From positions 2,600,597-2,664,596 of the forward strand of contig NZ_CM001489.1 in NCBI RefSeq assembly GCF_000262465.1: a DNA stretch of 64,000 nucleotides, given 5' to 3'. Below, one piece after another: positions 8,601 through 64,000 of this stretch. The stretch comes from Frankia sp. QA3 (GTDB lineage Bacteria; Actinomycetota; Actinomycetes; Frankiales; Frankiaceae). Each line of letters begins with the position of its first letter. The first letter of the stretch is position 1. Under the pieces are notes generated by a model, which was given only the letters and a program-made list of their open reading frames with translations, did no database searches and was not told the origin of the DNA. Both the position numbers and the translations under genes were made by a program.

Positions 8601-9632
8601 CATCGACAACGCCTGGTTGGACAGGCCGTCGGCGAGCAGGTGCACGCCGGACGGCCGGGCTCGCGGGTAGGTCTCGCCGGTGACCCGCTGGTAGATGCCG
8701 ATCAGCTCGTCGGCGAGCTCGTCCATCCCCGAGGGACGGGCCGCGGGCTGTTCCTGGAAGCAGCGTCGCAGCAGGCTGACGAGCTCGGGGGGAAGCGCCG
8801 GCAGCTCCGGGGCCGCCGGTGGCTGCTTGACGAACGCCTCGAACACCTCGCCCGCGACCTGACCGAACCTCGTCAACGGTTCTCCGGCGAACAGTTCGAC
8901 CACGCTCACCGCCCACGACCAGACGTCCGTCGCACGGCTCACCCGGACGTACCGGCCTGCCGCCGCGTCCGCCTGCTCCGGAGAGCAGTAGGCAGGGGTG
9001 CGGCCGGCGAAGGTGGCCAGCACGGTCCCGCCGACCGGCATCGCCTGTCCGGCCGCGTTCGCCCGCTCGCCGGCCAGAACACGCGCCTTGGCCAGACCGA
9101 AGTCGGTGACCTTGGCGGTTCCGTCCCGGGCCAGCATCACGTTGGCCGGCTTCACGTCCTGGTGAACCAGCCCGTGCTGGTGGGCGTGGGCCAGCCCCCA
9201 CGCAAACTGGATCGCAACGTCGAGGACGCGGCGCAGGGCCGCCGACGGCCCACCCCGGTAGATCCGCCGGTTCCGTACCGCATCGGCGAGGCTGCCGCCG
9301 TCCACCCACTCGGCGAACACATGCGGCACACCGTCGAGTCGACGGACATAGGCGCAGCTGACGACGTGCGGATGCAGGCCGAGGCCGACCCATGCCTCGG
9401 CCTCGGCCTCGAAAGCGACCCGGCCACGTTCCGAGGCGACGAACTCCGGGCGCGGTGTCTTGACCGCCAGGTCGATGTTCCAGCCACGGTGCCGGACCTT
9501 GTACACCAGGCCCATCCCGCCAGTCCGGACGACATCGACAACGTCGTAGAGACGGAGCACAACCTCGCCGACACGCCACGTGCGGGCTGACCCGCCGGCC
9601 GTGAAGTTCCGGCCGCGTTGCGCATCAACCAT
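5682..9632 (-). CDS. Ser/Thr protein kinase with TPR and WD40 propeller
   Basis: A 1316-residue multidomain kinase. Kinase domain at about residues 28-310: glycine loop RTGGMGLV, Lys 58 (AVKTP), HQDVKPANV at 157-165 (HQD replaces HRD; the catalytic Asp is present), DFG at 177-179 and a TPAYCSPEQ activation-segment end. A TPR-like helical stretch follows (about 335-450). From about 465 to 1265 there are many WD40 repeats (for example LTGHGNWVAVVAMSEDG, LRGHDRSVETVALSGDG and GADGTIRVWDLA), enough for one or two propellers. No membrane segment is visible. ATG at 9632 is used; no strong ribosome-binding site is seen. It is the first gene of a three-gene minus-strand set. The Arg/Gly-rich tail (last 40 residues) looks disordered. 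Confidence 0.9.
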   Translation of the reverse strand: MVDAQRGRNFTAGGSARTWRVGEVVLRLYDVVDVVRTGGMGLVYKVRHRGWNIDLAVKTPRPEFVASERGRVAFEAEAEAWVGLGLHPHVVSCAYVRRLDGVPHVFAEWVDGGSLADAVRNRRIYRGGPSAALRRVLDVAIQFAWGLAHAHQHGLVHQDVKPANVMLARDGTAKVTDFGLAKARVLAGERANAAGQAMPVGGTVLATFAGRTPAYCSPEQADAAAGRYVRVSRATDVWSWAVSVVELFAGEPLTRFGQVAGEVFEAFVKQPPAAPELPALPPELVSLLRRCFQEQPAARPSGMDELADELIGIYQRVTGETYPRARPSGVHLLADGLSNQALSMLDLGHPEQAEALWAQALQADPHHAPAIYNRGLHRWRAGLGSDAQLVAELEDVRTGHRRQQAWGDDYLLGCVHLERNDPDSAIPLFEAAARRSGDGDDAGSTVGVAEVDTALARARRMPKPRQPEVLTGHGNWVAVVAMSEDGRIAASADREGARPPRSKGAQVDIRVWDVATGQCLQVLRGHDRSVETVALSGDGRLLASGGVDQVVMVWNVPSGRLLHRLTGHTGSVRSVSVSPDGAVLVSLADDGRILVWETAAGRLVRTLRQERPSVTSFGESVTVTDQGRRVVNWDRPTRRLRVWDLRTGHLEHSVQLFHQDAVVGVGGRRALVTGKGVMQVWNTETMRAERELELDREFGAVSADGRQAVCGSAAGTEVWDLAVPRCLRTMPFTSHHIALSADGRSGISLGNSDLRLWTAGAVGPPSPWSYARPRPATEMSRDAEVVAIAMARSQRLARRGRWEAAADELRRARDTPGYEYELDLLDQWAKVGRHGRRVGLLSAWHLRDLAEAPDDLSAGLSIPAGSTRSFSPLLENGFALSPDGRFALTRHGFSLRIQDTATGEVHQTLSTYGPPFRCAVFSPDSRSVLTGNRDGYLQLWDAQSGECRVALGDHPDSVEAVVLSVDGRLAIAGCLDGTIKVWDLATQRCLRTLREADRFVTALAVSTDSRILISHEFELTGGYYDSLHFAQVWDLERGRLLQTTPCWEVSAHSTRISRDSRIGLSISSLGNSLRMFDPLTGRLETLLLSGPEKLGRVVMTPDGRLGCSAGLEGTLTVWDLAAVKRPMHVLTGHTGAVTSLVLTPDGRFALTGGADGTIRVWDLAAGRCLRSLAAHTGSVLSVRCGSDARTVLSLGEDKKAKVWQLAWDYEFPPPADWDEDARPYVDAFLERHRWIDVSWTDDDVHSLLDGLQAAGLGWLRPDGVRAELARAAAVRNAEGPGPPAGGSGLPGHGPNDRGRRLGLRGRRRHRPDLPDD

Positions 9633-14475: not shown

Positions 14476-15422
14476 GCGGAGACCACCGTTCGGTCGGAGT
14501 CGACCGGCGTGCCGGTCAGGGCCTGGAACACGTCGTCCAACGACGGCGGCTGGACGGCGACGTCGTCGACGAGGACTCCGGCCTGGTCCAACGCCCGGAC
14601 GACCGCGGTAGCCAGACCCGCGCCCCCCTCGACGGCGGCCCGCAGCCGCCGACCGTCCTGACTGGCCTCGACCGTCCCCGTCACGAGCGGTCCCAAAGCC
14701 CGCGCTGCCGCGCCGTGTGCGCAGCTGAGTGTCACCTCCAGGCGCGCGCCGCCGGTGGTGCTCTTCAGCTCGCGGGGAGTGCCGGCGGCGATGACGCGGC
14801 CGTGGTCGATGACGACGATCTGGTCCGCCAAGGTGTCGGCCTCGTCGAGGTACTGCGTGGTGAGCAGGACGGTCGTGCCCTCCTGCACGAGCTCGCGCAC
14901 GACGTCCCACATCCGCTGCCGACTCACCGGGTCCAGGCCCGTGGTCGGTTCGTCGAGGAACAGCACGGGCGGACGTGCCACCAGCCCCGCGGCCAGGTCG
15001 AGGCGGCGACGTGTCCCGCCCGAGTACCCCTTCACCGCCCGGTTCGCGACGTGCCCGAGTTCGAAGCGTTCCAGCAGCTCGGCCGCTCTCGCCGCCGCAC
15101 GGGAGCGCGGCAGGCCGCTCAGACTGGCGAGCATCATCAGGTTCTGGCGTGCGGTCAGCGCCTGGTCGACGGTCGCGTCCTGGGCGGTCACCCCGATCCG
15201 GCGCCGGACCTCGCCCGGATCGGCGCGTACGTCCCACCCCGCGACACGGGCCGACCCGCTGTCCGGCCGAGTCAGCGTCGTCAGTACCCGGACGGTCGTC
15301 GACTTGCCGGCGCCGTTGGGGCCCAGCACGCCGAGCACGGTTCCCTGGGCGATGGCCAGCGAGACGCCGGCCAGCGCCTGGGTTTCCCCGTAGCGTTTCG
15401 TCAGGCCCTCGGCCTCGATGAC
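14472..15422 (-). CDS. ABC exporter ATP-binding protein (DrrA-like)
   Basis: Energy-coupling subunit of the adjacent exporter. Walker A GPNGAGKST; Q-loop region GVTAQDATVDQALT; signature YSGGTRRRLDLA; Walker B PPVLFLDEPTTGLD; H-loop TTQYLDEA. A C-terminal extension of about 80 residues ends in the DrrA-type DDVFQALTG motif. The frame clearly begins with VIEAEGLTKRYGETQAL, but no ATG, GTG or TTG exists in frame between there and the methyltransferase stop. A GTG in another frame at 15441 suggests a further one-base error or an unusual start. The coordinates begin at the first clearly homologous codon. Likely exports a hydrophobic metabolite or drug. Confidence 0.85.
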   Translation of the reverse strand, partial: VIEAEGLTKRYGETQALAGVSLAIAQGTVLGVLGPNGAGKSTTVRVLTTLTRPDSGSARVAGWDVRADPGEVRRRIGVTAQDATVDQALTARQNLMMLASLSGLPRSRAAARAAELLERFELGHVANRAVKGYSGGTRRRLDLAAGLVARPPVLFLDEPTTGLDPVSRQRMWDVVRELVQEGTTVLLTTQYLDEADTLADQIVVIDHGRVIAAGTPRELKSTTGGARLEVTLSCAHGAAARALGPLVTGTVEASQDGRRLRAAVEGGAGLATAVVRALDQAGVLVDDVAVQPPSLDDVFQALTGTPVDSDRTVVSA

Positions 15423-45529: not shown

Positions 45530-48500
45530 ATGGCCGTTTCCATGCTCGGGTTCCTGGGACAGTTACTACCCGACGCCCTGGACCGCATTGTCCTGCCGGT
45601 CGAAATCCGGCGGCTCCTCGAGCACCTCTCGACGGATCTGTCGCCGCCTGCCGGGCCTGCCGCCGTGCCACTCTCCGGCGATGTCCAGGCCGCCGGCGAC
45701 GATTCGGCCGGCGGCTTCGCCGAACTCACCATCGACCCGCTCGGTCCCGCGATCCCGTTCGACCTTCGGCTGACCGGCCCGGCGGCCACGCCTACCGGCT
45801 TCCAGCTCGACCTCAAGCCCGCCGACGGCCTGCTGAAGCTCCCGGCCGCCTGCGTGCCGGCCGCAATCCAGGTCGATGCCTCCGGCAGGCGTGCGATCGT
45901 CGCGGCGCCGGCCGGCGGCAGGGTCGCGCTCACTCTCAACGGCGCCGACCCTTTGGCGATCCGTATCGAGGGCAGCGTCGAGCGCCCCGCGCGGCAGGGC
46001 ATCGTCGCTGTCGACGCCGCCGCGCGGGGCGTCCTGACCGTCGGTACCGCGCCAGCCGCCTTCCTGCTGGGCGGTCAGGGCTTCGGCCTTCACCTCCCCG
46101 GCGGTCTGACGGTCGACTCCTCGCCCACGGACGCGCCCGCGCCGGTGTCCGGCGGGGTCGGCGGCCCGGCACGGTCCGCGGCGCCGGGCTGGGAGGGCGT
46201 GGCGATCCGCGCGGCCGAGCTCTTCCTGCCGGCGCAGACTCCGCTGGTCGGGAGCGGCCCGATCCCGGTCGAGTTCGACCTCGGCATGCCGGGCGGCCTC
46301 TATGGACGCACGGAGGCGCACGTCCCGGCCGACGGGTCGCGCCCGGCCTTCGACGTCACCCTCGTGTGGGACGACCCCGGCGCGACCTCCCTGGCCTCCG
46401 CGCTGCCGGCCACGGTCGAGATCCGCACCACCTGGAACCTGGACGAGGCCGCCGGCCCGCCGGGCGTCGGAACCATCGAGCTGCTCGGCGGCCGCCCGCT
46501 GCGCGTGACCGGCCGCTTCGCGCGCAGGCCCGGCACGAGCGAGTTCGACTTCGGCCTGGTGGTCGAGGCCGGTGGCGACCAAGGGCTGCTTTGCGTGCGG
46601 GGCCAGGACCCTGCCGGCAGGGTGGTCGTTACCGCCGCGGCCCTCGCGACCGCCTTCATCGCCGATGCCGCCCCGCCCACACCGCAGCAGAGCGAGTACG
46701 ACGGCTTCGGCGCGACGCTGCACATGCTGCTGGTCGCCGCCGCCGGCCTCAGCGCGTTCCTCGACGACGGCACGGTCGTCCTCCACGCGGTCGAGGTGGA
46801 CGCCGGGCTCGGCTCCGCCGGCACCAGGGTCGCCCTCCGTGTCGACTACAGCGTCGACGTCGTGGTCAGGCCCATCGACCTCGGCTTCATGAGCATCGGG
46901 ATGAAGCCCAGCGTGCCCATGCGCCTGCGCTATCGCAACGTCCGGCTGCTGGTCGACTTCGCCCAGTCCGGCCTGGACCGCTTCCACCTCTCGTTCGGTG
47001 AGGCCGACGTCGACGTGGAGGACCCCGGCGGCTGGCAGGTCCAGTCGCCCGGCACGCTCAAGGACCTCTTCGACGTGCTCGGCAGCCGCTCCGGTCATGG
47101 CTCGCAGTGGTTCGAGATCGATCTGCGGTTCGCGGTCGACCTTGGCCCGGTCCGGGTCAGCGGGGCGACGGTCCGCGTCACGCTCGGCCGCAACGGCGCG
47201 CTGCGCCCCGAGGTGCGTGGGCTCGACGCCGCTCTCAACATGCCGGGGCTGTTCACGGCCAGCGGCAAGGCGACGCTCGGCCCCGACCGGCTGGACGTCG
47301 CCCTCGCCGCCACGGTCGTCCCGCTCGACGTCGGCGCCTTCGCCAGTCTCACCTACTCCGACCTCGGCAACGGCGTCACCGCGCTGATCTTCTCGCTGGG
47401 GGCGGACCTGGCCGGGCCGATCCCCTTCGCCAACAGCGGCCTCGGGCTCTACGGGCTGGGAGGTGTCTTCGGCGTCAATGCCGCTCTGCCCGTCCCCGGA
47501 CCGGGCAAGGACCCCGTCCTGTTCCAGCTCGAACTGGACCCTTTCGACACCGAGGCGTACATCGGTGCCCCCGGCGGGAGTGTCTTCGGCCTCGGCGTGG
47601 TGGTCGGCACCGCCCCGGACCTGGGCTTCACCTTCAGCGCCAAGGGCGTCGTGGTCATCGGTCTGCCGGACACCGCCGTTCGCGCGAGCCTTCAGGGCCG
47701 CGTGCTGTACCCGCGGGTGAAGACCGACGACGACCTGGGACCGCCCGCCGCCGGCGGCGGCTTCGTCGGCGTGCTCACCGTCGCCAAGGACGGCGTCACC
47801 ATCGCCGCCCGCGGCCACTACGAGGTGCCCGTCCTGTTCACCGTCGACGTGCCGTTCGGCGCACACTTTCCGACAGCGGAGACAGATCATCCGGAGCGCT
47901 GGTACGTCCGGCTCGGCTCGGACGGCTGGCATGATCGCGGCCCCGGCCCCATCCAGGCTAAGGTGCTCCCGGGCATCCTTACCGCCAATGCCTGGGCCTT
48001 CTTCATGGTCGAGGGGGCCGGCATCCCCGAACTCGGCGGCCCTCACTCGACGCTCTCGCCGAACGGCTTCTCGCTCGGCTTCGGCGCCGGCTTCACCGCC
48101 GTCTACGGCATCCCGCTCATCCACGTCGACGTCTCCGCGTCCGTCATCCTCGCGCTCGGCACCCATCCCCTGCTGCTCGCCGGGACCGGCCACCTCTCCG
48201 GCAGCCTGCACCTCGGTCCCGTCTCCATCGGCGCCAGCGCCGCGATCGACTTCCTCATCGCCCCCGATCTCGGCGAGCCCTGGGTGAGATTTCAGGTCTG
48301 CGGCGAGGTCGACCTGTTCTTCTTCAGCCTCGAGGGCTGCGTCACCATCAGGATCGGCAATCCGAGCGAGGCGATCCCCGACCCGGACGACTGGCCGCTC
48401 GAGTCGGTTGTCCTCGCCGACCACCGCTACACCAGGCTGGCCGACGCCGTCCGCGCGCCGACCCAGCCGCCGCTCGAGAAACTCCCGGTCGTCTGGCCGG

Positions 48501-50821
48501 ACGTGATCCCTCTCCTGCAGTTCACGCACGGCCCGGCCAACGGCCTGCTACCAGGCCCGTTTACCGAGAAGATCGACTGGACCGCGGTACCGGTCGGCAG
48601 CGGCATCATCGGTAACGAGCGCCTCAGCTACACCTACACCCTCACCTCGATCACCCTCACCGCGATCGACCCGGCCACCGGGGCCGCGACACCGGAAGCC
48701 GGGCCGCTGGAGGCTGCCTGGCAGGAGCCCGTCACGGGCGCGCCCGGAGAACCGGGCGCGCGGGAGCTGGCGCTGCTCACCTGGGAGTCAGCCCTCTGGA
48801 TACGCAAGCTGGCCGACGGCGCCGTCAACGCTCCGCACGACCCCGTCCCCGGTATCGTCCGCCGCTGTCACGAGCGGTTCGTCGCCGAACCTGGCTGGGC
48901 GCTCGGGAGCCTCGCCGACCGGCCCGGCCCAGGCCGGCCGTGGCGGTTGCCGACGGAACCCGCGCCCGGCCCCTACGCCTCGGGGTTCGACGTCCACGTC
49001 ACCGCCGAGTGGTGGGGAATCCCCGTCGACAACTCGGCCACCGGGTTCTTCCCGGTGACGTTCCCCCTGCGGCTCGGAGCGCCCACGGCGTTCGACGCCC
49101 CGCTACGAGGGATCGGCCGTGCCTTCACCGGCGGCTTCACCCTCCCCCACGTGGTCGGTCTGCCCCTCGACCTCGAGCCGCACGAGAGCGCCCCGGGAAT
49201 CGCCGAGCTGCCGGTCAGGGTCGTCCTCACCTTCTCCGAGCCGTTGCTCGACCCACACCTCGGCCTGAGCCTGCCGCGCTGGCCGCCGGACTACGCCGAC
49301 CGCCGGATGGAGGTCAGCCTGATCGGCCCGGGTGGGTCGGTCCCGTTACCCGTCCTGGGCGACGAGCCCGTCTCGGACGACGCCTTCGTCCGCGGCTACG
49401 GGATCGCCGGTGGTCCCTACACCGCCATCGCGCTGGAGTACCACGCCGCCCTCGCGCCGCGGGTGCTCGGTGTCCGCGGCATCTGCGGGCGGGCGAGGGA
49501 CGCGGCGGACACCGCCACCGCGGCGACCAACAAGGCCGGCCAGGCCGTCGCCGCCAAGGCCCCCACGGTCACGCCACGGCGGATGCTGCGCCCCAACACC
49601 GTCTACCGCATTGATGTCGGCCTCTCCGGCCAGAGCCGGCGCGACGGCAAGAACGGCGACGTGCACACCCACACGGACAGCTACTGGTTGCGCACTCCGG
49701 ACATGTCCGGACCCGCGCTGAGCAACGGCGTGCAGTACCTCCAGGGGACCGGCGTCGCCGCCGCCCTGGAGCACTACGAGACCTACGTCGCCGCCCCGGC
49801 GGTCCTCCGGAAGGTGGACAACTTCGACCCTGCCTACCTGGAACGCTACGTCCTGTCCTGGACGCCGGCCGACCGGACCGGCCACTGGTTCCGCGACGAC
49901 CCGGTCGGCGTCCAGCTCGACGTCAACCACGTGCCGGACCTCGCCGCCGTCTACGACCACGACACCCTGGTGCGCGTCCGGCGTACCGACCCGACGAAGG
50001 GGGAACCCGACCCGTTCGAGGAGCAGACCTTCCCGGCCACCAACATCTGGCAGGCCGCCGTCTCGGCCCTGCTGCCGAAGGCGGATCTGCGCTTCCACGA
50101 GGCGACGTCCGCGGCAGGCGCCTGCCCGTACCCGTCGCCGGGCGCGACGCTCGGCGGGCGGCCCACGCTGCGCCCGCTGTCCGACTACGAGCTGTCCCTG
50201 GCCTTTCCCTTCCTCGACTCCGCCGGCTCCGGGCGGTCGGGAGGCGCCGCGATCCGCGGCGGGATCTTCGGCACCTCCCGCTACGCCAGCCCACGCGACC
50301 TGCTCGCCGACCTCGGCTTCGTCACCCGCCACGCGGGGGGCGGCGGCGTCGCTGGCGACCTACGGGTCGACCGGATTCCGGTGACCGCCGGCGACACGAC
50401 CGCCGACGGCGCCGTCGAACGCGCCCTCACCAGGCTCGGACTCGGCCGGCTCCCCCATGCCCGGCTGGCTCGCGCGACCGCGCTCTGGACGGACGACGGT
50501 GGCGTCTGGGTGCTCCACGGCGTGCTGCTCGAGGCTCCCGAACCCATCCACCGGGCGGACACGCTCGGCCTCGCCGACTTCGGCGGCCGGCTGCGGGTGG
50601 ACGGGCTCTCCTGCGACGGGCAGGTGTTCGAGGGGATGATCCGCTCCACCTCCGGCGACCGGCTGCTGTTCCTGACCGACTTCCCCCTCGTGCCGGCCGC
50701 CCCGCTCCTTCTCGCCCTGACCCTCCAGGACATCCCGCTGGAGGCCGCCACGGTGCCGGTCACGACGGCGCTCGAGTGCCCGGTGTCGCCGACTCCAGGC
50801 TTCGCGGAGGATCTGCCATGA
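45530..50821 (+). CDS. Very large beta-rich protein (1763 aa) of unknown function
   Basis: One uninterrupted frame of 1763 residues, GC-rich and free of damage. No signal peptide (start MAVSMLGFLGQLLPDALDRIV). Long stretches alternate short beta-strand-like segments and Gly-rich turns, for example LRYRNVRLLVDFAQSGLDRFHLSFGEADVDV, GLGLYGLGGVFGVNAALPV and GGSVFGLGVVVGTAPDLGFTFSAKGVVV (about residues 460-720), then SASVILALGTHPLLLAGTGHLSGSLHLGPVSIGASAAIDFLI (about 870-915). The style resembles DUF6603-type large proteins; this is an impression only. Residues 1050-1700 look like several beta-sandwich domains. Overlaps the next gene by ATGA, so the two products are made together. Possible roles: scaffold, surface or tail-associated protein, or toxin carrier. 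Confidence 0.75.
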   Translation: MAVSMLGFLGQLLPDALDRIVLPVEIRRLLEHLSTDLSPPAGPAAVPLSGDVQAAGDDSAGGFAELTIDPLGPAIPFDLRLTGPAATPTGFQLDLKPADGLLKLPAACVPAAIQVDASGRRAIVAAPAGGRVALTLNGADPLAIRIEGSVERPARQGIVAVDAAARGVLTVGTAPAAFLLGGQGFGLHLPGGLTVDSSPTDAPAPVSGGVGGPARSAAPGWEGVAIRAAELFLPAQTPLVGSGPIPVEFDLGMPGGLYGRTEAHVPADGSRPAFDVTLVWDDPGATSLASALPATVEIRTTWNLDEAAGPPGVGTIELLGGRPLRVTGRFARRPGTSEFDFGLVVEAGGDQGLLCVRGQDPAGRVVVTAAALATAFIADAAPPTPQQSEYDGFGATLHMLLVAAAGLSAFLDDGTVVLHAVEVDAGLGSAGTRVALRVDYSVDVVVRPIDLGFMSIGMKPSVPMRLRYRNVRLLVDFAQSGLDRFHLSFGEADVDVEDPGGWQVQSPGTLKDLFDVLGSRSGHGSQWFEIDLRFAVDLGPVRVSGATVRVTLGRNGALRPEVRGLDAALNMPGLFTASGKATLGPDRLDVALAATVVPLDVGAFASLTYSDLGNGVTALIFSLGADLAGPIPFANSGLGLYGLGGVFGVNAALPVPGPGKDPVLFQLELDPFDTEAYIGAPGGSVFGLGVVVGTAPDLGFTFSAKGVVVIGLPDTAVRASLQGRVLYPRVKTDDDLGPPAAGGGFVGVLTVAKDGVTIAARGHYEVPVLFTVDVPFGAHFPTAETDHPERWYVRLGSDGWHDRGPGPIQAKVLPGILTANAWAFFMVEGAGIPELGGPHSTLSPNGFSLGFGAGFTAVYGIPLIHVDVSASVILALGTHPLLLAGTGHLSGSLHLGPVSIGASAAIDFLIAPDLGEPWVRFQVCGEVDLFFFSLEGCVTIRIGNPSEAIPDPDDWPLESVVLADHRYTRLADAVRAPTQPPLEKLPVVWPDVIPLLQFTHGPANGLLPGPFTEKIDWTAVPVGSGIIGNERLSYTYTLTSITLTAIDPATGAATPEAGPLEAAWQEPVTGAPGEPGARELALLTWESALWIRKLADGAVNAPHDPVPGIVRRCHERFVAEPGWALGSLADRPGPGRPWRLPTEPAPGPYASGFDVHVTAEWWGIPVDNSATGFFPVTFPLRLGAPTAFDAPLRGIGRAFTGGFTLPHVVGLPLDLEPHESAPGIAELPVRVVLTFSEPLLDPHLGLSLPRWPPDYADRRMEVSLIGPGGSVPLPVLGDEPVSDDAFVRGYGIAGGPYTAIALEYHAALAPRVLGVRGICGRARDAADTATAATNKAGQAVAAKAPTVTPRRMLRPNTVYRIDVGLSGQSRRDGKNGDVHTHTDSYWLRTPDMSGPALSNGVQYLQGTGVAAALEHYETYVAAPAVLRKVDNFDPAYLERYVLSWTPADRTGHWFRDDPVGVQLDVNHVPDLAAVYDHDTLVRVRRTDPTKGEPDPFEEQTFPATNIWQAAVSALLPKADLRFHEATSAAGACPYPSPGATLGGRPTLRPLSDYELSLAFPFLDSAGSGRSGGAAIRGGIFGTSRYASPRDLLADLGFVTRHAGGGGVAGDLRVDRIPVTAGDTTADGAVERALTRLGLGRLPHARLARATALWTDDGGVWVLHGVLLEAPEPIHRADTLGLADFGGRLRVDGLSCDGQVFEGMIRSTSGDRLLFLTDFPLVPAAPLLLALTLQDIPLEAATVPVTTALECPVSPTPGFAEDLP

Positions 50822-53800
50822 GACCAGATGTCGCACAGCCAGCGCTGTTCCGGGCGAGCGCCGTCGCCGCCGACGGCGTGCCGTGGCTGGCGGCGGGGTT
50901 CCACCTCCGGGTCCGGCTCAGCCCGTTGGTCGGCTTCCCGCTGCACCCGTTCGCCGCCTGGAGGCTGGAGCACGGCCACGACGCGGGCGAGCCGCCGATC
51001 CGGTGGCGCGACGCCGCGGGTAACTCTCTGGCCGTCCCCTTCGACCTGGAGCGGGTGGGCGGGTTCGCCGAGGGCTCCCTGTTCGGCGTCTCCGCGGCGA
51101 ACCCCTACGTCTGGATCGAGGTCGACGTCGACAACCGCGGCCTGCGTCTCGACCTGCTGGACACCGCCGAGACGGCGGGTGGCGGCGCCCACGTCATCGC
51201 CACCCGCCGTCGCGAGCCGTTCCGGTTCGGCCACACGGGCGTCGTCCGCCTGCGGGCATCCGGTGCCGGGACGATCGGCACGACCCGGGCCCTGCCGCGG
51301 TCGGTCCTGGCCATCGAACAGGTCATCGAGCGGGAACCGGACCTCACCTTCGGGCTGCCGCTCGCCGCCGGCTACTGGTATGCCCCCGGGCCGAACGACC
51401 CGCTGGCCGCGGCGAAGGAGCGCGTCGGCCTGGCCGCGCCGCGCCGGCTCAGCCCGCCCGACAACCCGACGGGCGCACTCCCCGACGACACCGACCCCGG
51501 CGACGAGACCGCGCGGATCATGGATCGGATCGCGCCGGAGCTCGTCGACCCGTGGCTCGCCCGGGGCTGGAGCGACCGCGACCTCTCACCAGTCCACGCC
51601 ACGTTCAGCGATACCGCTCCGGCCCCTGGCAACCAGCCGGTCACGGCCAGTGCCGCCGTGACCCCGTCGCTGCTGACGATGGCCGTCGACCCTCAGATCG
51701 CCCGCTACCTCGGCCTCGTCACCGCCGTCCCGTTCGGCGCCACCAGGCCGGTGGAACGGGCCAACGTCTGGGTCATCGCCAGCCGCTGGGCCATCCAGCG
51801 GGGCCGCGCCGTCCTCCGGCCGAGCGGAGCGCGCCCACTGACCCTCGACGACGTGCTCGGACGCCGCTCCCAGCTCGCCGGCCGGCTCGACGGGCTGCTG
51901 CACAGCGTCTTCCCGGACGCGCGGGACCTCCTGGCCGACCTCCCCGGACGGCCCGGTGACCGCGAGAGCGGCCCATGGTCCAGTGTGCCGCTGGTCGCGG
52001 TGGCGGTCGCCGCCGGTGACGCCCCACCGGACCCGCCCGACCCCTTCCAGCTCACCGCCGCCGAGCCCGGCGCCTGGAACCCCCAGGGCGAACCCGGCCG
52101 CACCGGCGGGGAAAGCTGGCGGCAGCGGATCTCCCTCGGCGCACGGCCGGCACCCGGCATGGTCGGCTTCGCCCGGATGGCGCCGAGTGGTCCCGTCGCG
52201 CTGCACCGCCTCGAGCCACCGCCGGGGCAGGGCTATGTCACCCGCGCCCTGCCGCTGGTGCCGAACCGGGCCAGTGATGACAGCCACAGCCGCGTCCTTG
52301 AGGACCGCGCCGTTCCGGCCGGCCCGGCCGGCGCGAGCTGGCGGGTCTGGGTGGCCGACGAGTTCGGCCAGTGGTCCGGCGGCTCCGATCTCGCCCTGCC
52401 CTCGCCCGACCGGCCCGCGCCGCCCCCGCCGGTGGTGGAGGCGACCTTCCACGCCGACCCGGACGACGGCACGAGCGGACCGCGCGTGCCCGGTACCCTC
52501 CACCTCCGCTACGCCGTGCCGGACCCCGCCCATGCGTCCCCCGGCGGCCTGCCGGTCACGGAGCTGCGGGTCAGCGTGGACGGGGTTGCACTCCCACCCA
52601 GGCCGGTCACCCCGGGTGACACGGTCGTCCTCGAGCCGGCACCGAACCCGTTCGAGGTCGGCGAACAGCGCGGTGTGCAGGTCGTCTCCACGTACCGCGA
52701 CGCCGCCGGCACCGCGTCGGTACCGTCCACGACCGACTGCGCCGCGTACGACGCCCGCGCGCCGCGGGCAATCCCCACCTCGCCAATGCTCCTGTGGACT
52801 GGCCAGCGGGACGCGACCGGCCAGGCCGAGCTCGCCCTCCGCTGGCCGCCGCGCCCCGGCGCCGCCCGCTACCGGATCTACCTCGGCGACGCCCGCCGCC
52901 TTGCCGGCGAACTCGGTATCTCGCTGGCCGACACCCCGGTCCGGGCCGCACAGGCTAAGGTGATCCACCCCGCCAGCGCCAACCTCACCGCCAAAGGGGC
53001 CTTCACCTTCCTCGGAGAGATCACGGGCACCCCCGCCGGCGACGGTTTCGTCCCCTTCGCCACCCGCATCCCCGGCGGGCTGCGCGGCGTCCAGCTCGTC
53101 CGCGTCGTGCCGCTCACCGCCGGCGGGGCGGAGGCCGCCTTCCAGACCTGCGGCCTGGTCCCGGTCGCCGTCCCCAGCATCGACCGACCGCCGCCGCCCC
53201 TGCTCGACGCGGTCACCGACCCCGCAGGCGGCCTCACCCTGACGGTGCGCGCCCGCGGCCTGCGCCCCGAGCCGCTCGCCGCCGCACCGGGCGGCGCGCC
53301 GGAGTACCGCCTGCGCCGCACCCGCCGCGGCCTCGCCCGCCACTTCGCCCCCGTGTGGACCAGCGGGAACCTGACCGGCCCCGACGCCGACGGCGGCTGG
53401 ACAGCGACGGTGACGGTGCCGGCCGCCGAGCTCATCCCCTTCGTCCGCACGGTCTGGTACGCCGAGGCGCGTTACCCGGCCGAACCAGCCCTCCCGCCCG
53501 GGACGGTCGCGCTGCCCGCCGACGGCGGCGTGGAGCCGGTCTGGAGCGCGGTCGGAGACAGTTCCGAGGGGCTTTGGAGCGAGCCCTCCCTGGCGGCCGA
53601 GTCGCTGCCCATCCCACCAGCCGACCCCGCCCCGCCCCCCGCGCCGGCCGTCACCGCGACCGCTGACGGCTCCATCGAGCTCACACTGAGCGGCTTGCCC
53701 ACCGCCCATCCCACGGCGAGTACGCCCTACCACCTGGAGATCTACCGCGGCACGCCCGGCACCGCATCGGAGCGGCGGGCCGTCGTGGCCGTCCTCGACC

Positions 53801-53904
53801 CCGACCTCGCCTGGACCGACCCAGCTCCGATCCCCGCTGGCGCGCACTACGACCTCGTCGTCGTCGACCCGATCGGGCGGCGCGGCCCGGCGACACGCGC
53901 CTAG
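50818..53904 (+). CDS. Large beta-sandwich protein (1028 aa), coupled to the 1763-aa protein
   Basis: ATG 50818 overlaps the previous stop (ATGA) and has GGAGGA upstream, so it is preferred to an in-frame ATG at 50776. The N-terminus (VPWLAAGFHLRVRLSPLVGFPLHPFAAW) and the following 200 residues form an unassigned domain. From about residue 500 the chain shows fibronectin-III-like or similar Ig-fold repeats separated by Pro-rich hinges: RPAPPPPVVEATFHADP, ELALRWPPRPGAARYRIYLGD, PVTAGGAE-like, IELTLSGLPTAHPTASTPYHLEIYRGTPG. No catalytic motif and no signal peptide. The next gene (hemopexin-zincin) starts 123 bp later on the same strand. The pair looks like structural or adhesive proteins acting together; function unknown. 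Confidence 0.75.
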   Translation: MRPDVAQPALFRASAVAADGVPWLAAGFHLRVRLSPLVGFPLHPFAAWRLEHGHDAGEPPIRWRDAAGNSLAVPFDLERVGGFAEGSLFGVSAANPYVWIEVDVDNRGLRLDLLDTAETAGGGAHVIATRRREPFRFGHTGVVRLRASGAGTIGTTRALPRSVLAIEQVIEREPDLTFGLPLAAGYWYAPGPNDPLAAAKERVGLAAPRRLSPPDNPTGALPDDTDPGDETARIMDRIAPELVDPWLARGWSDRDLSPVHATFSDTAPAPGNQPVTASAAVTPSLLTMAVDPQIARYLGLVTAVPFGATRPVERANVWVIASRWAIQRGRAVLRPSGARPLTLDDVLGRRSQLAGRLDGLLHSVFPDARDLLADLPGRPGDRESGPWSSVPLVAVAVAAGDAPPDPPDPFQLTAAEPGAWNPQGEPGRTGGESWRQRISLGARPAPGMVGFARMAPSGPVALHRLEPPPGQGYVTRALPLVPNRASDDSHSRVLEDRAVPAGPAGASWRVWVADEFGQWSGGSDLALPSPDRPAPPPPVVEATFHADPDDGTSGPRVPGTLHLRYAVPDPAHASPGGLPVTELRVSVDGVALPPRPVTPGDTVVLEPAPNPFEVGEQRGVQVVSTYRDAAGTASVPSTTDCAAYDARAPRAIPTSPMLLWTGQRDATGQAELALRWPPRPGAARYRIYLGDARRLAGELGISLADTPVRAAQAKVIHPASANLTAKGAFTFLGEITGTPAGDGFVPFATRIPGGLRGVQLVRVVPLTAGGAEAAFQTCGLVPVAVPSIDRPPPPLLDAVTDPAGGLTLTVRARGLRPEPLAAAPGGAPEYRLRRTRRGLARHFAPVWTSGNLTGPDADGGWTATVTVPAAELIPFVRTVWYAEARYPAEPALPPGTVALPADGGVEPVWSAVGDSSEGLWSEPSLAAESLPIPPADPAPPPAPAVTATADGSIELTLSGLPTAHPTASTPYHLEIYRGTPGTASERRAVVAVLDPDLAWTDPAPIPAGAHYDLVVVDPIGRRGPATRA

Positions 53905-54027
53905 CCGACCACAGCCGACGCCGATGGCCCATCTCGTCCGCGCGCAGCCAGGGACGCCGAACAGCTGTATCGCCAGCACCAGCCACTCGCTCGTCACGAA
54001 GCCTCGCTCAGGCAGGAAAGGAATGTC

Positions 54028-55335
54028 ATGGCTTCCAGCGCCCGCATCGACGGCTCGGTCGTCCTACCCGGAGCCGGTGACATCGTCACCGTGTTCAGCC
54101 GCGGCTGGGCCGTCGACCACGACTTCGGCGCCGACCCCGACCGTGTGGTCGGCTCGGGTCAGCCTCGACGGATCTCGTCGCTGGGTTGGCCGGCGCCGTT
54201 CGACCGTGACCTCGACGGCGTGCTCGCCGGGCAGGGGGCCTACGCGGACTTCGTCTACGTCTTCGCCGGTGGGAAGTACCTGCGGTTGCGCGCCGACACG
54301 CTCACCCCGGACGGCGAGCCGCGCGACATCGCGGGGCCGTGGTCGTTGCCCGCCTCGTGGACCCACATCGACGCGGTGTTCACCGGCGGCGGGGTGAAGT
54401 CAGGATTCGCCTACTTCTTCCGCGGCAACGAGTACCAGCGGTACGACTGGCTCAGGGACGCCGTCTCCTACCCGGCACCCCGCCCGATCGCGCCGCACTG
54501 GCACGTCGACGACCCGCTCCTGGCCGGAGACTTCGACGGGGCGATCACCGGCCGCGGGGCCTGGCACACCAAGGTGTGGCTGTTCAAGCGGGTGAAGGCC
54601 ACGGTCGACGACCACGGTGCCCTCGTCCCGGCCGGCGGTCATGTCGTCAGCGCGCCGCGCTACCTGCGTTACGACTTCAACAGCGAGACCGTCGACTTTG
54701 TCGAGAGCGTGCCCGCGGACGCCGTCACGAACTGGAAGGGGCTGCTGCCCCTGGTCGACAGCGGCGAGGCCGTGGACGAGGCAGTGGCCTGGCTGAATGC
54801 CAGCATCGCCGCGCTCGACGCGGGGATCCCGACGCCGGCGCTGACAACCGCGTTCGGACACCACATCATGACGACGTCACCGGACGCCGCGAGCCTGGTC
54901 ACGTTCGTCACCCGGCTGACGGCGGCGCGCGTGATCCTGGAGGCGATCCCGGCACGGTTCGCCTGGGCGGTCATTGATGAGTTCCCCGCCCACACCTACC
55001 CGCCGCCGAACACCCGCACGGAGGTCGGCGACCTGTTCTCCACACGAAACGGACCGCACGCCCGCTCGGCATCTCTCATCCACGAGGCGGTTCACGCGAC
55101 CCTCTTCGACACCATCGGCACCTCGCGGGTCGACGTGCCGGAATGGTCAGGCGCGACGATCAACGGACACGACTGGTCACCGGCGGTCGACCCGACGACA
55201 CATATCCAGCTACCCGCCTACCACACCATCAGCACCGCCGACGCGCTGGAGAATCCCTCTTCGTATGCCGCGTTCGCCGTCGAAATCGGCACCGGCGCCG
55301 ACGCCCGCTATGGCGCGGGGCGGCCGCAGGAGTGA
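54028..55335 (+). CDS. Hemopexin-repeat protein with C-terminal zincin motif (aspzincin-like)
   Basis: A 435-residue protein. Residues 15-215 hold hemopexin-type repeats: RDLDGVLAGQGAYADFVYVFAGGKYLRLR, THIDAVFTGGGVKSGFAYFFRGNEYQRYDW, and LLAGDFDGAITGRGAWHTKVWLFKR. The C-terminal half has a metalloprotease motif HEAVH (His 352, Glu 353, His 356) in SASLIHEAVHATLFDTIG, followed by ISTADALENPSSYAAFAVEIG, which resembles the A-x-NADSYxxFA stretch of M35/lysine-specific aspzincins. The third Asp ligand is not certain (candidates lie in the GHDWSPAVDPTTH segment). No signal peptide. ATG 54028 follows AAAGGA. Downstream is an IS5 scrap. Context suggests a toxin or cargo protein. Confidence 0.75.
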   Translation: MASSARIDGSVVLPGAGDIVTVFSRGWAVDHDFGADPDRVVGSGQPRRISSLGWPAPFDRDLDGVLAGQGAYADFVYVFAGGKYLRLRADTLTPDGEPRDIAGPWSLPASWTHIDAVFTGGGVKSGFAYFFRGNEYQRYDWLRDAVSYPAPRPIAPHWHVDDPLLAGDFDGAITGRGAWHTKVWLFKRVKATVDDHGALVPAGGHVVSAPRYLRYDFNSETVDFVESVPADAVTNWKGLLPLVDSGEAVDEAVAWLNASIAALDAGIPTPALTTAFGHHIMTTSPDAASLVTFVTRLTAARVILEAIPARFAWAVIDEFPAHTYPPPNTRTEVGDLFSTRNGPHARSASLIHEAVHATLFDTIGTSRVDVPEWSGATINGHDWSPAVDPTTHIQLPAYHTISTADALENPSSYAAFAVEIGTGADARYGAGRPQE

Positions 55336-55369
55336 CGGACCCGGCCGCGGCGCCCTCCCCGCACCGAGT

Positions 55370-55520
55370 TGACTCCGGTGCCCGCTGGCACGACACGGGC
55401 ATCACCGCGAAGATCCACGACGCGTTACGGGACAGGGCGCGCGAGCAGGAGGGTCGCGACACCGAACCCACCGCCGGCGTGATCGACTCCCAGTCGGTGA
55501 AGGGCGCACACACCGTCTTA
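55370..55520 (+). mobile_element. IS5-type transposase N-terminal scrap
   Basis: The frame reads HDALRDRAREQEGRDTEPTAGVIDSQSVKGAHTV. VIDSQSVKG carries the first catalytic Asp of IS5-group transposases. The rest of the element is missing, and the homology starts about 35 bp after the hemopexin-zincin stop. Confidence 0.7.
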
Positions 55521-55694
55521 GTACTACAGCCGCAGTGATTTCTTTGTGGTCGCTGTCTTGGTTCTGCTTGCTCGCCGGGGTTCTCGGTGAACCGCGACGC
55601 GGCGTTGGTAGTGGCAGCGCATGGCGGTGGCCTGGTGACGGCGGCGGAAGTCCGATCAGCTCAGCACGTGCCCGCGCCGGCGACGCCGGCAGGG

Positions 55695-61115: not shown

Positions 61116-61982
61116 TCACACGGACCCGGAGCGAACTGTGGTCGACGTTCCGACTGTCCGGCGTGACCGCCCGCCGTCCCTAAGCGGCTTCAGAATTGGT
61201 TCGACCAGGTCGTACATCGCGGTCGAGGGTTCCAGGTGCAGGTCCCGGCGCATGAGTTCCCGGTAGCTGTAGAATGCCTGCAGCGCCTCGAACGTGTTTC
61301 CCTCCGCCAAGTGGATCTGCACCAGCAGCCGGTGCGGGGTCTCCCTGAGCGGCTCGGTGCGCAGCGCCTCGATGGACGCCTGCAGAGCCTCCCCGAACTC
61401 GCCCGCGCGGACATGCGCGTGAGCGATGCGTTCCAGGGCGTGTAGTCGCAGCTGGCGCAGCCGCTCCCGATCCAGCAGCACCCAGTCGTCGTACCAGCCG
61501 GGCAGCAGGTCGTCGCGGCCCGCGGTCAACACCTTGAAGGCGAGGCGCAGATCGCCGTCGGCGCGCACGTCGGTCGCTACCCGCACCAGGTCGTCGACGT
61601 CGACGACGATGCCCGGATCGAGCCGGACGGAGTCGCCATCGGCGATCATTATGCGGCAGGGGTACTTCCGTAGTCGCCACAGGCCGGTGCGGAACCGGGA
61701 GAGCGCGCGTTCCTCCGGGATGTCAGGCCAGAGGAGGCCGGTCAGGTAGCTGCGACTACAGCCGGGGTGCAGACCGATGACGGCGATGAGGCGCTGCAGG
61801 CCTCGGGGAACGCCCGCGGATTCCCCGTCGTGGACCAATCGGAAGCCGTCAAGCAGGAACAGGCGGGTGGGTGCGGTACCCGTCGAACGGCGGGTGGATG
61901 TCGGGCCAGGGGTCAAGCCCGAGGTCGTTGAGGCCACGGAAACCCCCATCGAGCAGCTCGCTGTGATCGAGTATAAGACCAT
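61116..61982 (-). CDS. SARP/BTAD-family transcriptional activator
   Basis: 288 residues. From about residue 40: RLFLLDGFRLVHDGES, GLQRLIAVIGLHPG, RSYLTGLLWPDIPEERALSRFRTGLWRLRK. This is the OmpR-like DNA-binding domain of SARP proteins (the wing and 'LWPD' segment). Then the bacterial transcriptional activation domain: LRQLRLHALERIAHAHVRAGEFGEALQASIEALRTEPLRETPHRLLVQIHLAEGNTFEALQAFYSYRELMRRDLHLEPS. The first 40 residues are low-complexity Ser/Thr and the start is uncertain (ATG 61982 used). SARPs of this size often sit at the edge of actinobacterial eCIS clusters; divergent in sense from the sheath-like gene downstream. Confidence 0.85.
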   Translation of the reverse strand: MVLYSITASCSMGVSVASTTSGLTPGPTSTRRSTGTAPTRLFLLDGFRLVHDGESAGVPRGLQRLIAVIGLHPGCSRSYLTGLLWPDIPEERALSRFRTGLWRLRKYPCRIMIADGDSVRLDPGIVVDVDDLVRVATDVRADGDLRLAFKVLTAGRDDLLPGWYDDWVLLDRERLRQLRLHALERIAHAHVRAGEFGEALQASIEALRTEPLRETPHRLLVQIHLAEGNTFEALQAFYSYRELMRRDLHLEPSTAMYDLVEPILKPLRDGGRSRRTVGTSTTVRSGSV

Positions 61983-62021
61983 GCCATAGCTGTGCGCAGC
62001 GTGACCTGAATACTGTCGCTA

Positions 62022-62279
62022 TCATCCGCGCAAGAAGTCCTGCAGCCAGACGTCGACCAGGTGGCTGAGCTCCGTGGGATCGGTCGTGGCGCCCATTGAG
62101 GTCGCGGTCCAATCGTTTCTCTCGCCCGCGCAGAGCAAACGGGCGGTCATCCGACCGGCCTGGCCGCTGACCCGCCAAACCCGGATCAGCAGCACCTCGC
62201 TGCGCACGCCGACATCCCCCTCGTCCCCCATGCCGTACCAGTCGCCGCGTTCGCCGTGAGGATCGGTGTCGAAAGTCAT
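62022..62279 (-). CDS. Small hypothetical protein before the sheath gene
   Basis: An 85-residue protein from ATG 62279, chosen because GGGAGG lies 6-11 bp upstream (a longer in-frame start at 62375 exists). Sequence: TFDTDPHGERGDWYGMGDEGD, then EVLLIRVWRVSGQAGRMTARLLC, then ELSHLVDVWLQDFLRG. The middle strand pair and the end helix look like a small folded domain; family unknown. Same strand as and 39 bp upstream of the SARP gene; it could be co-transcribed with it. Confidence 0.65.
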   Translation of the reverse strand: MTFDTDPHGERGDWYGMGDEGDVGVRSEVLLIRVWRVSGQAGRMTARLLCAGERNDWTATSMGATTDPTELSHLVDVWLQDFLRG

Positions 62280-62466
62280 GAATCCTCCCGGGTTCTCGGC
62301 GTGCGCCGCACGCGTGCCCGGCGGCGAGATACCCGGGTCCTGATCGGCGACACGGCATCGGGGCCCTTGGCGCACTGTGCATCGATCACCGTCAACGACA
62401 CGTCAACGAATCCGGACCGAGGCTGATGGCCGTGTGACGTCCTGGAGACGCCGGTGCGCGCACCGT

Positions 62467-62584
62467 ACTGCCTTGGCGGGCGCAGGACTGCCTTGGCGGG
62501 CGCAGGCCACGTGACCGATCCGCCCGCGGCTCGTAGGGCACGGCCGACCGTTGACACCGCGTGAACGACCCGAAGGAGGTTCGA
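62467..62584 (+). promoter_or_regulatory. Upstream region of the sheath gene with a 20-bp tandem repeat and a -35-like box
   Basis: A perfect tandem direct repeat of ACTGCCTTGGCGGGCGCAGG occupies 62467-62486 and 62487-62506. Downstream are TTGACA at about 62551 and a strong ribosome-binding site AAGGAGG at 62573-62579 before ATG 62585. Direct repeats a fixed distance before the -35 box are the usual form of SARP binding sites, and a SARP gene lies next door, so this may be its target. Inference from position and form. Confidence 0.55.
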
Positions 62585-64000
62585 ATGACCGCGCTCGTTG
62601 TGCCCGGTGTCCGGGTCGAGGCCACGTTCGACCCGGTCCCTCCGCCGCCGTCGCCCGCCGGCATCCTCGGGCTGGTCGGCGTCGTCGACCGGCGGCCGAA
62701 CGGCCTCGTCGGGCTGACGTCCACGACGGAGATCGCCACGCTGCTCGGCCCGGGCACCCTCTCGTCGATGCCGGAGCTGGCCGACGCCCTTCGCAACGGT
62801 GCGTCCGAGGTCGTGGTCTCGGCGGTGGACGATGCCGCGGCCGGAACCGGGAAGCTGCGGCTCAAGGACCGCGACGGCGACGACGTCGTCGAACTGCGGG
62901 CCCGTTCGGCAGGCCCCTGGGCCGATCAGGTCGAGGTGCGCGTCGACGAGGTGCTGAGCGCCGACGGCCGCAGCGTCAGGGCCGTGGACGTCACGGTCTA
63001 CGTGGCGGGCGTCGTCGCGGAGGTGCACCGCAACCTGGTCCTCGACCCGCGTATTCCCGAACGGGATCTCTTTCAGGTGATCAACCTGGATTCCACCACG
63101 CTCGTCGCGCTCGACGCGGCGCTGCTGAACGCCGAGCCCACCGTCGTCCGGGACGGCGGTGCCTTCGCCAACCGGCAGCCGGCCAGAGCCCAGCGCGTGC
63201 TGACCGCGGGCAACGCGCCGACCCTTCGCCTGACGGCCAGGAACGCGGGCGAGCGCGGCAACCAGATCTCCGCCCAGGTGCTGGCCGGGCGTGCCGCCGC
63301 CGTCCTCACCGACGCCGCCGCCGCTCCGACGATCCGGGTGACTTCGCGCGAGGTCAGCCTCATCACGCCCACGGTGACCGTCGCGGCGGGTTCGGTGCCG
63401 AACACCGTGACGGTGACCGTCATCCGTGGGACGCAGGATGAGGTGTACGCCGATCTGGCCTCCGTCGGAGCTGTCGTCGCGGCGCTGGGCGGCTCGGAGT
63501 TCGTCCGCGGCCAGGCGATCGACGGCGGGGCGCTGCCGGCCGCGGCCACCACCCCGCTGGCGGCCACCCGCACGTTGGTGGTCCGCGTGGCCGGTGCCGA
63601 CGACGTGCTGTCCGAGGACCGGCTGACGGTCGACGAGGTGGTGGCCGGGCTAGCAGGCAACGCGTTCGTCGACGCGACGATCCTCGCCTCGACCGGGGCG
63701 GCGCTGGACACCGCCGCCGAGAACTCCGGCTTCCTCACCGGCGGCCGCGGCCGGGAACCAGTCGTCCGTCTGGCCGACGCCGCCGACCGCGACGTCGCCG
63801 AGATCGGTGCCGCGCCGGACGTGGATCCGGCCGGCTGGGTGCTCCGCCTGACCACGACGTCCAGCGGCTTCCGACTCTCCCTGGACAACGCCGACGGCAC
63901 CACACTGGAGCGGCACGAGGACCTCACCACCGACCCGGACAGCGACCGGTACCTGGTCGCCGTCCTGGGTGCCGAGTCCGAGCGGATCCGCGCGTTCGAC
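62585..64000 (+). CDS. Phage-tail-sheath-like protein (probable eCIS sheath), runs off the window
   Basis: 472 codons to the window edge without a stop. It begins MTALVVPGVRVEATFDPVPPPPSPAGILGLVGVVDRRPNG (cut), then LTSTTEIATLLGPG and MPELADALRNGASEVVVSAVD. The layout 'PGV-x-VE...GIxGxVGxxxxG...xxSxxEFxxxFG...xxxAxxxxFxNGG' is that of contractile tail sheath proteins of Myoviridae and extracellular contractile injection systems. Later parts (WADQVEVRVDEV, VHRNLVLDPRIPERDLFQVINLDS, FVRGQAIDGGALPA, LTVDEVVAGLAGNAFVDATIL, FRLSLDNADGTTLERHEDL) fit the variable middle domains; the conserved C-terminal sheath domain would lie beyond 64000. ATG 62585 has AAGGAGG upstream. Probably the first gene of a cluster continuing to the right. 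Confidence 0.75.
   Translation, partial: MTALVVPGVRVEATFDPVPPPPSPAGILGLVGVVDRRPNGLVGLTSTTEIATLLGPGTLSSMPELADALRNGASEVVVSAVDDAAAGTGKLRLKDRDGDDVVELRARSAGPWADQVEVRVDEVLSADGRSVRAVDVTVYVAGVVAEVHRNLVLDPRIPERDLFQVINLDSTTLVALDAALLNAEPTVVRDGGAFANRQPARAQRVLTAGNAPTLRLTARNAGERGNQISAQVLAGRAAAVLTDAAAAPTIRVTSREVSLITPTVTVAAGSVPNTVTVTVIRGTQDEVYADLASVGAVVAALGGSEFVRGQAIDGGALPAAATTPLAATRTLVVRVAGADDVLSEDRLTVDEVVAGLAGNAFVDATILASTGAALDTAAENSGFLTGGRGREPVVRLADAADRDVAEIGAAPDVDPAGWVLRLTTTSSGFRLSLDNADGTTLERHEDLTTDPDSDRYLVAVLGAESERIRAFD

What the first reader, a model, noticed from the sequence alone, without database searches (positions are those of the whole stretch)
45530..55335. Undescribed three-gene set: two giant coupled beta-rich proteins and a hemopexin-zincin
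A 1763-aa and a 1028-aa protein overlap by ATGA, and a hemopexin-repeat protein with HEAVH follows on the same strand. In a window full of broken genes these nearly 10 kb are undamaged, implying selection. None of the large proteins shows an enzyme motif or signal peptide. They may form a scaffold or shell with the protease as its active part, or be outlying genes of the injection system 6 kb away, now separated by IS and regulator genes.
Basis: partly seen in the sequence, partly recalled or inferred. Interest (0 to 1): 0.72.

Follow-up and report, generated by a model that had tools for sequence, protein, structure and literature searches.

The report
Widespread two-gene giant-protein cassette
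Two very large, overlapping genes of unknown function travel together as a unit through several phyla of bacteria, while the protease-like gene beside them in this genome is an exchangeable add-on.

Summary
The three genes exist as described. The two giants (1763 and 1028 aa, ATGA overlap) are a real unit: in a 48-locus scan seeded on ORF1 alone, ORF2 follows in 47 (the 48th contig ends inside ORF1). Stop and start overlap by 4 or 1 nt in 29 of 39 intact pairs; the two proteins' distances correlate at r=0.98; dN/dS is 0.11-0.35; DNA similarity to three near relatives (one Streptomyces, two Mesorhizobium) covers ORF1-ORF2 and stops there. ORF1's core is a remote DUF6603 relative (98.4%) with marked two-residue hydrophobic alternation; ORF2 matches no Pfam family. 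The third slot varies: hemopexin/M35-like zincin here, another hemopexin protein in Streptomyces, a beta-lactamase-fold gene in one Mesorhizobium, a PLD-like protein lacking the catalytic signature in 23 of 48 loci. 'Three-gene set' is thus only partly right. The injection-system link is not supported: 27 of 36 carrier genomes show no sheath gene, and in the other nine none lies near the pair. Twelve true DUF6603 loci mostly carry their own giant partners, which suggests a broad undescribed class of DUF6603-centred multi-giant-protein assemblies. Structure prediction failed and was then switched off, so molecular function remains inference.

The parts
45530..50821 (+). ORF1, 1763 aa, giant remote-DUF6603 protein
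   Evidence: Open frame; homologous core in 48 loci; hhalign of the family core to DUF6603 98.4%
46727..48409 (+). ORF1 residues 400-960: conserved core with period-2 hydrophobic alternation
   Evidence: lag1 z -4.5, lag2 z +4.7, GRAVY +0.37; 21 of 28 family cores pass both cut-offs
50818..50821 (+). ATGA: ORF2 start overlapping ORF1 stop
   Evidence: Sequence; 4- or 1-nt overlap in 29 of 39 intact relatives
50818..53904 (+). ORF2, 1028 aa, partner protein with no Pfam family; Ig/FnIII-like by eye only
45581..53901 (+). Extent of DNA similarity to S. laculatispora (77%); the two Mesorhizobium matches (69-70%) lie within it. The shared unit is ORF1-ORF2
   Evidence: blastn
54028..55335 (+). ORF3, 435 aa, hemopexin repeats plus zincin; accessory gene in the third slot, with its own ribosome-binding-site-like sequence, 123 nt after ORF2
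55081..55095 (+). HEAVH motif of ORF3; DVPEW and NPSSYAAFA downstream resemble the M35 arrangement (by eye, weak)
   Evidence: relative in L015 hits Aspzincin_M35 at E=0.031, below cut-off

Best explanation
ORF1 and ORF2 are one horizontally mobile, translationally coupled cassette that makes an obligate complex of two giant proteins. Shown: the pairing, the overlapping junction, the co-inheritance and the purifying selection. Inferred: the translational coupling and the complex itself. ORF1 carries a remote DUF6603-type core that looks built of amphipathic beta strands. The likeliest reading is a long beta-sheet groove, tube or shell with a hydrophobic face that binds a lipid-like ligand or packs against itself (my probability about 0.25 for a lipid-binding groove, unproven). 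ORF2, probably a chain of beta sandwiches (by eye), would hold or cap it. The third-slot gene is a lineage-specific accessory: in the window a hemopexin/M35-like metalloprotease, elsewhere another hemopexin protein or a PLD-like protein that lacks the catalytic signature.
For: ORF2 follows ORF1 in 47 of 48 loci. A search for ORF2 itself, over 296 genomes of the class, found full-length ORF2 in four genomes, the same four that hold the complete or contig-cut ORF1 core next to it. Overlap of 4 or 1 nt in 29 of 39 pairs and a start 1-12 nt past the stop in 9, the spacing that PMC10666635 links to coupled subunits of heteromeric complexes (title and start of abstract seen in a listing). Mirror-tree r=0.98 over 40 loci, 0 of 1000 permutations as high. 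dN/dS 0.31/0.35 (window-Streptomyces) and 0.11/0.15 (Mesorhizobium pair). Window, Streptomyces and Mesorhizobium form one clade with SH-aLRT 100, and the shared DNA block is the pair alone. hhalign of the ORF1 core to DUF6603: 98.4%, 381 columns. Period-2 alternation: both cut-offs passed by 21 of 28 ORF1 cores and 5 of 12 DUF6603 domains, 0 of 25 background genes.
Against: Hydrophobic alternation also fits a membrane beta-barrel or an ordinary beta sandwich; TamB, a lipid-groove protein by my recall, passes both cut-offs in only 2 of 12 frames (one of the other ten is a wrong frame) and has no detectable homology (1.6%). No convincing internal repeats in the core. All 44 ORF1 proteins measured hold at least one 19-residue stretch with mean hydropathy of 1.6 or more, so membrane insertion is not excluded. 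G030 holds a 2957-aa ORF1 relative without an ORF2 match. No ligand or expression data.
Confidence: 0.55

Rival explanations
1. The pair is a cytosolic, lysis-released toxin or adhesin complex, built like insecticidal toxin complexes (large A, middle B, small exchangeable C), with the third-slot protein as the active part.
For: Size order ORF1 > ORF2 > ORF3; no signal-peptide-like N-terminus; exchangeable third gene; hemopexin is listed as a predicted effector domain of contractile injection systems (PMC8213781, passages seen).
Against: No Pfam match of ORF1 or ORF2 to any toxin-complex domain (none among the 35 ORF2 members); 25 of 48 loci lack the PLD-like gene, a few of them cut by contig ends; the PLD-like protein lacks HxKxxxxD in 17 of 17 examined.
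Confidence: 0.2
2. The genes are outlying parts of the contractile injection system that begins at 62561.
For: Only 7.2 kb apart in this genome; hemopexin domains occur in such operons.
Against: 27 of 36 carrier genomes give no PF17482 match; in the other nine every sheath is on another contig or at least 225 kb away by coordinates (mostly draft genomes, one sheath model only). blastp of 16 predicted ORFs of the operon against the relatives' loci gave one weak hit (1.4e-5, 104 aa, L074), though those loci mostly reach only about 7 kb upstream and 1-4.5 kb downstream. Regulator- and transposase-like frames lie between (by eye); the shared DNA block holds only the pair.
Confidence: 0.04
3. ORF1 is an outer-membrane or cell-surface protein; the OmpA-like insert anchors it to the wall.
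For: OmpA-type motif in 39 of 44 relatives and profile matches of the family to OmpA-like structures; one Paracoccus homologue is annotated 'outer membrane protein'.
Against: No signal-peptide-like N-terminus; the motif is absent from the window protein and its three near relatives, two of them Gram-negative, but present in Gram-positive Kribbella and Jiangella; the TD that I recall as usual in this motif is often AS or DD.
Confidence: 0.15

Closest known systems
DUF6603 (Pfam PF20248), unknown function
   Same: ORF1 core is homologous over 381 columns, shows the same kind of hydrophobic alternation, and heads an operon of giant genes
   Different: The window protein was not found by the Pfam model in the genome-wide search, only another gene was; giant partners of true DUF6603 genes show no relation to ORF2 or the PLD-like protein
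Phospholipase D superfamily (third gene of 23 of 48 loci)
   Same: Profile match 97.2% over 161 columns to a PLDc_2 protein that lies directly upstream of another ORF1 relative
   Different: HxKxxxxD absent from 17 of 17 examined (16 of the 23 loci and the R. tropici plasmid copy); none of 13 members scanned matches a PLD model in Pfam
Hemopexin-M35 metallopeptidases of Streptomyces
   Same: Hemopexin repeats fused to an HExxH domain
   Different: Domain order reversed in the NBC_01361 example; M35 similarity of ORF3's relative below cut-off

Membership tests
DUF6603 | Match to PF20248 over its cut-off | tested here: not met
   ORF1 itself gives no Pfam hit and was not found by the genome-wide PF20248 search; relatives in G062, G079 and G042 pass the cut-off
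DUF6603 | Homology of the core by profile comparison | tested here: met
   98.4%, E 9e-15
Contractile injection system (eCIS) | Sheath, spike and baseplate genes in the same cluster | tested here: not met
   Sheath model absent from 27 of 36 carrier genomes and not near the pair in the other nine
TamB/AsmA-type lipid-groove proteins | Sequence homology to TamB | tested here: not met
   1.6% probability against 12 TamB frames, one of them wrong; AsmA not tested
TamB/AsmA-type lipid-groove proteins | Beta-groove fold | not testable with these tools
   Structure prediction switched off
Anti-phage defence systems | Match to PADLOC-DB models | tested here: not met
   0 families for 5 proteins
Insecticidal toxin complexes | Toxin-complex Pfam domains | tested here: not met
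   No such hit
M35 metallopeptidases (ORF3) | HExxH with downstream Asp; Pfam Aspzincin_M35 | tested here: inconclusive
   HEAVH present; ORF3's own tail hits nothing, homologue L015 E=0.031
Hemopexin repeat proteins (ORF3) | PF00045 over cut-off | tested here: met
   29.1 bits against a cut-off of 21.3

The most novel reading that the evidence does not exclude
DUF6603 marks a whole undescribed class of bacterial nanostructures: a constant amphipathic-beta giant assembled co-translationally with one of several unrelated sets of giant partners, plus an exchangeable small active protein, and spread between phyla by horizontal transfer.
Probability: 0.35. Interest if true: 0.85.

Novelty: categorically new. 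Interest (0 to 1): 0.62.

Why it matters
More than 8 kb of coding sequence kept intact and apparently transferred between phyla must do something valuable, yet no family model, solved structure or paper that I searched describes the pair. If the constant-core, variable-partner reading holds, it gives a handle on a domain of unknown function found in 20 of 197 genomes of this bacterial class and makes the question directly testable by expressing two genes.

Tried and rejected
Fixed three-gene set: rejected, since the third slot varies. Injection-system satellite: rejected. Viral or phage origin: no relatives in viral contigs or phage records. Defence system: no PADLOC match. TamB homology: none. 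Internal repeats in the ORF1 core: none convincing (best 26.5%). Homology of ORF2 or the PLD-like protein to the gene groups around true DUF6603 genes: none (0.2% or less). Solved structures for ORF2 and the PLD-like protein: none. Literature: 'DUF6603' 0 papers; PF20248 and two protein accessions 0 papers; hemopexin with contractile injection system 1 paper. A general hemopexin search was read as a listing only; nothing in it pointed to this cassette.

Counts to read with care. The 48 loci come from one degenerate peptide pattern in one scan, so they lean towards copies that keep that motif. The junction count uses 39 of the 48: left out are L056, L066 and L099 (cut by contig ends), L083, L092 and L079 (ORF1 in pieces), and L080, L081 and L098 (ORF2 present but not delimited when the list was made); it takes the first in-frame ATG from 5 nt before the end of the stop, so longer overlaps from GTG or TTG starts (about 18 nt in several) would be missed. 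The hydrophobicity background is 25 genes called on the minus strand of the flanks; one has a higher lag-2 value (5.0) than the ORF1 mean but the opposite lag-1 sign. One of the 12 TamB frames (L120) is the wrong frame. The sheath search covered 36 of the 48 carriers, with one sheath model. The flank search reaches only about 1-4.5 kb past ORF2, so it alone could not have seen an operon placed as in the window; one search was added for that reason.

Full report
1. Observation. ORF1 (45530-50821) and ORF2 (50818-53904) share ATGA; ORF3 (54028-55335) starts 123 nt after ORF2 behind AGGAAAGGA. ORF1 and ORF2 hit no Pfam, NCBIfam, PHROGs or PADLOC family. ORF3 hits Hemopexin (9.4e-7) and aligns to the hemopexin part of matrix metalloproteinases. 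The window lies in a 7.59-Mb single-contig genome. From genome sizes I guess Frankia; no tool named it.

2. Where the relatives are. ORF1 is rare in its genus: none of the 12 other genomes of the genus that were searched gave a match. tblastn against plasmids found distant relatives on Paracoccus aminophilus pAMI4 and Rhizobium tropici pRtrCIAT899c, both followed at once by an ORF2 relative. A profile of the core (A1) found 48 loci in genome contigs and none in viral contigs. The closest are Streptomyces laculatispora (77% over the core) and two Mesorhizobium strains (73-74%).

3. The pair is the unit. With profile searches ORF2 follows ORF1 in 47 of 48 loci; in the 48th (L056) ORF1 runs to the contig end. 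The junction is a 4- or 1-nt overlap in 29 of 39 intact pairs, a start 1-12 nt past the end of the stop in 9, and 79 nt past it in 1 (sequences). Over 296 genomes of the class, full-length ORF2 occurs in four, the same four that hold the complete or contig-cut ORF1 core. Against this, partial ORF2 matches occur in G084 (94 positions, in a separate 279-aa frame) and G009 (60 positions), G030 has a 2957-aa ORF1 relative without ORF2, and G249 and G013 have short core matches. Distances of the two proteins correlate at r=0.98 over 40 loci (0 of 1000 permutations as high). blastn of the window against the near relatives matches 45581-53901, the pair and nothing around it; the only other match to them is 276 nt of another gene far off, at 14760-15027. 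dN/dS is 0.169/0.546 and 0.213/0.609 against Streptomyces, 0.053/0.474 and 0.085/0.557 between the two Mesorhizobium. dS is a plain Nei-Gojobori estimate and is biased in such GC-rich genes.

4. Spread. The tree of 45 ORF1 rows spans Actinomycetota, Pseudomonadota, Bacteroidota, Acidobacteriota, Myxococcota and Gemmatimonadota, the last two from metagenome bins only. The window joins S. laculatispora and the two Mesorhizobium in a clade with SH-aLRT 100; it is a quick tree without bootstrap, with warnings of long branches and uneven composition. ORF1 is still 69% identical between the window and Mesorhizobium, another phylum, which is best read as transfer.

5. The third slot. 23 of 48 loci carry a ~1050-aa gene right after ORF2, related by profile to a PLDc_2 protein (97.2%) but lacking HxKxxxxD in 17 of 17 examined (16 of the 23 and the R. 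tropici plasmid copy). None of the 16 loci placed in Actinomycetota, nor L098 (a Cellulomonas by its title), has it. S. laculatispora has a hemopexin protein (Pfam 1.1e-26) with a different C-terminus; Mesorhizobium L054 has a Beta-lactamase2 match (2.9e-6); L053 has no same-strand gene called right after ORF2. The only full-length relative of ORF3 found is on Streptomyces nigrescens plasmid SNP1 (49%), with no ORF1 or ORF2 homologue by phmmer within 20 kb; in 296 class genomes the other matches cover the hemopexin part only. The hemopexin-zincin is best read as an accessory acquired separately.

6. What ORF1 is. Pfam DUF6603 hits the relative in G062 (1.9e-11), and profile comparison links the ORF1 core to 12 true DUF6603 domains at 98.4%. 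Both show alternation of hydrophobic residues every second position (means: ORF1, 28 rows, lag1 z -3.96, lag2 z 4.36; DUF6603, 12 rows, -2.9 and 3.5) with a positive mean hydropathy, against a mean lag2 of 0.40 in 25 background genes. Both cut-offs (lag1 under -3, lag2 over 3) are passed by 21 of 28 ORF1 cores, 5 of 12 DUF6603 domains and 0 of 25 background genes, and by 2 of 12 TamB frames, which show no homology. 39 of 44 relatives have an OmpA-type motif that the window's clade lacks.

7. A wider class. Twelve true DUF6603 loci were read. Large genes beside them fall by BLAST into two further sets: one with two gene groups in 8 and 7 loci, one with two groups in 4 and 3 loci. None of these groups is related to ORF2 or the PLD-like protein by profile (0.2% or less); the two sets were compared with each other by BLAST only. 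In one locus (L111) a member lies upstream rather than downstream. The window's genome carries one of these loci about 0.26 Mb before the window. In G030 a PLD protein with an intact HSKVWIVD motif sits directly before an ORF1 relative. The common theme is a DUF6603-type giant with type-specific giant partners.

8. The injection system. A contractile operon starts at 62561: sheath C-terminal domain, PAAR, Baseplate_J, an RHS-repeat protein of 2279 aa, and a BTAD regulator upstream. PMC8213781 (passages seen) names hemopexin and BTAD among domains found with such operons. blastp of 16 predicted ORFs of this operon against the relatives' loci gave one weak hit, but those loci reach only about 1-4.5 kb past ORF2. 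So 36 of the carrier genomes were searched whole for the sheath model PF17482: 27 have no match; in the other nine (L060, L062, L070, L072, L076, L087, L088, L094, L096) the sheaths lie on contigs of another length or at least 225 kb away by coordinates. Most of these genomes are drafts and only one sheath model was used. The neighbourhood is best read as coincidence.

9. How it may work. Overlapping genes of this spacing often encode subunits of one complex (PMC10666635, title and abstract start in a listing), so an ORF1-ORF2 complex is the safest inference.

Noticed in passing
window 61116-64000, continuing about 25 kb beyond the window (L013, L014, L127): Contractile injection operon with BTAD regulator, sheath, PAAR, Baseplate_J and a 2279-aa RHS-repeat protein at its 3' end.
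   Followed up: partly
L107 (G000:C1:2336001-2356000): The same genome holds a true DUF6603 gene followed by another giant gene, a different type of cassette.
   Followed up: partly
L100-L111: True DUF6603 genes sit in two further kinds of multi-giant-gene cluster; the five giant partners tested (from L102, L108 and L109) match no Pfam family.
   Followed up: partly
L128 7972-8811: A separate 279-aa protein carries a domain matching ORF2 positions 145-238 (genome-search E 2.8e-17).
   Followed up: no
L052 17204-18421: S. laculatispora third-slot protein: four hemopexin repeats plus a cysteine-containing C-terminus with CGEYRQYVRG; that C-terminus has no Pfam match.
   Followed up: partly
L130 near 8427-8879: The genome has a PLD-like stretch (E 1.1e-15 to the third-slot profile) away from the cassette.
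   Followed up: partly
window 55356-55538: What looks by eye like a transposase fragment begins about 20 nt after ORF3's stop.
   Followed up: no
L053 1-6571: A Mesorhizobium copy lies downstream of what look by eye like type I secretion genes; the other Mesorhizobium copy does not.
   Followed up: no
carrier genomes of L060, L062, L070, L072, L076, L087, L088, L094, L096: Nine of 36 carrier genomes hold sheath genes elsewhere in the genome.
   Followed up: partly
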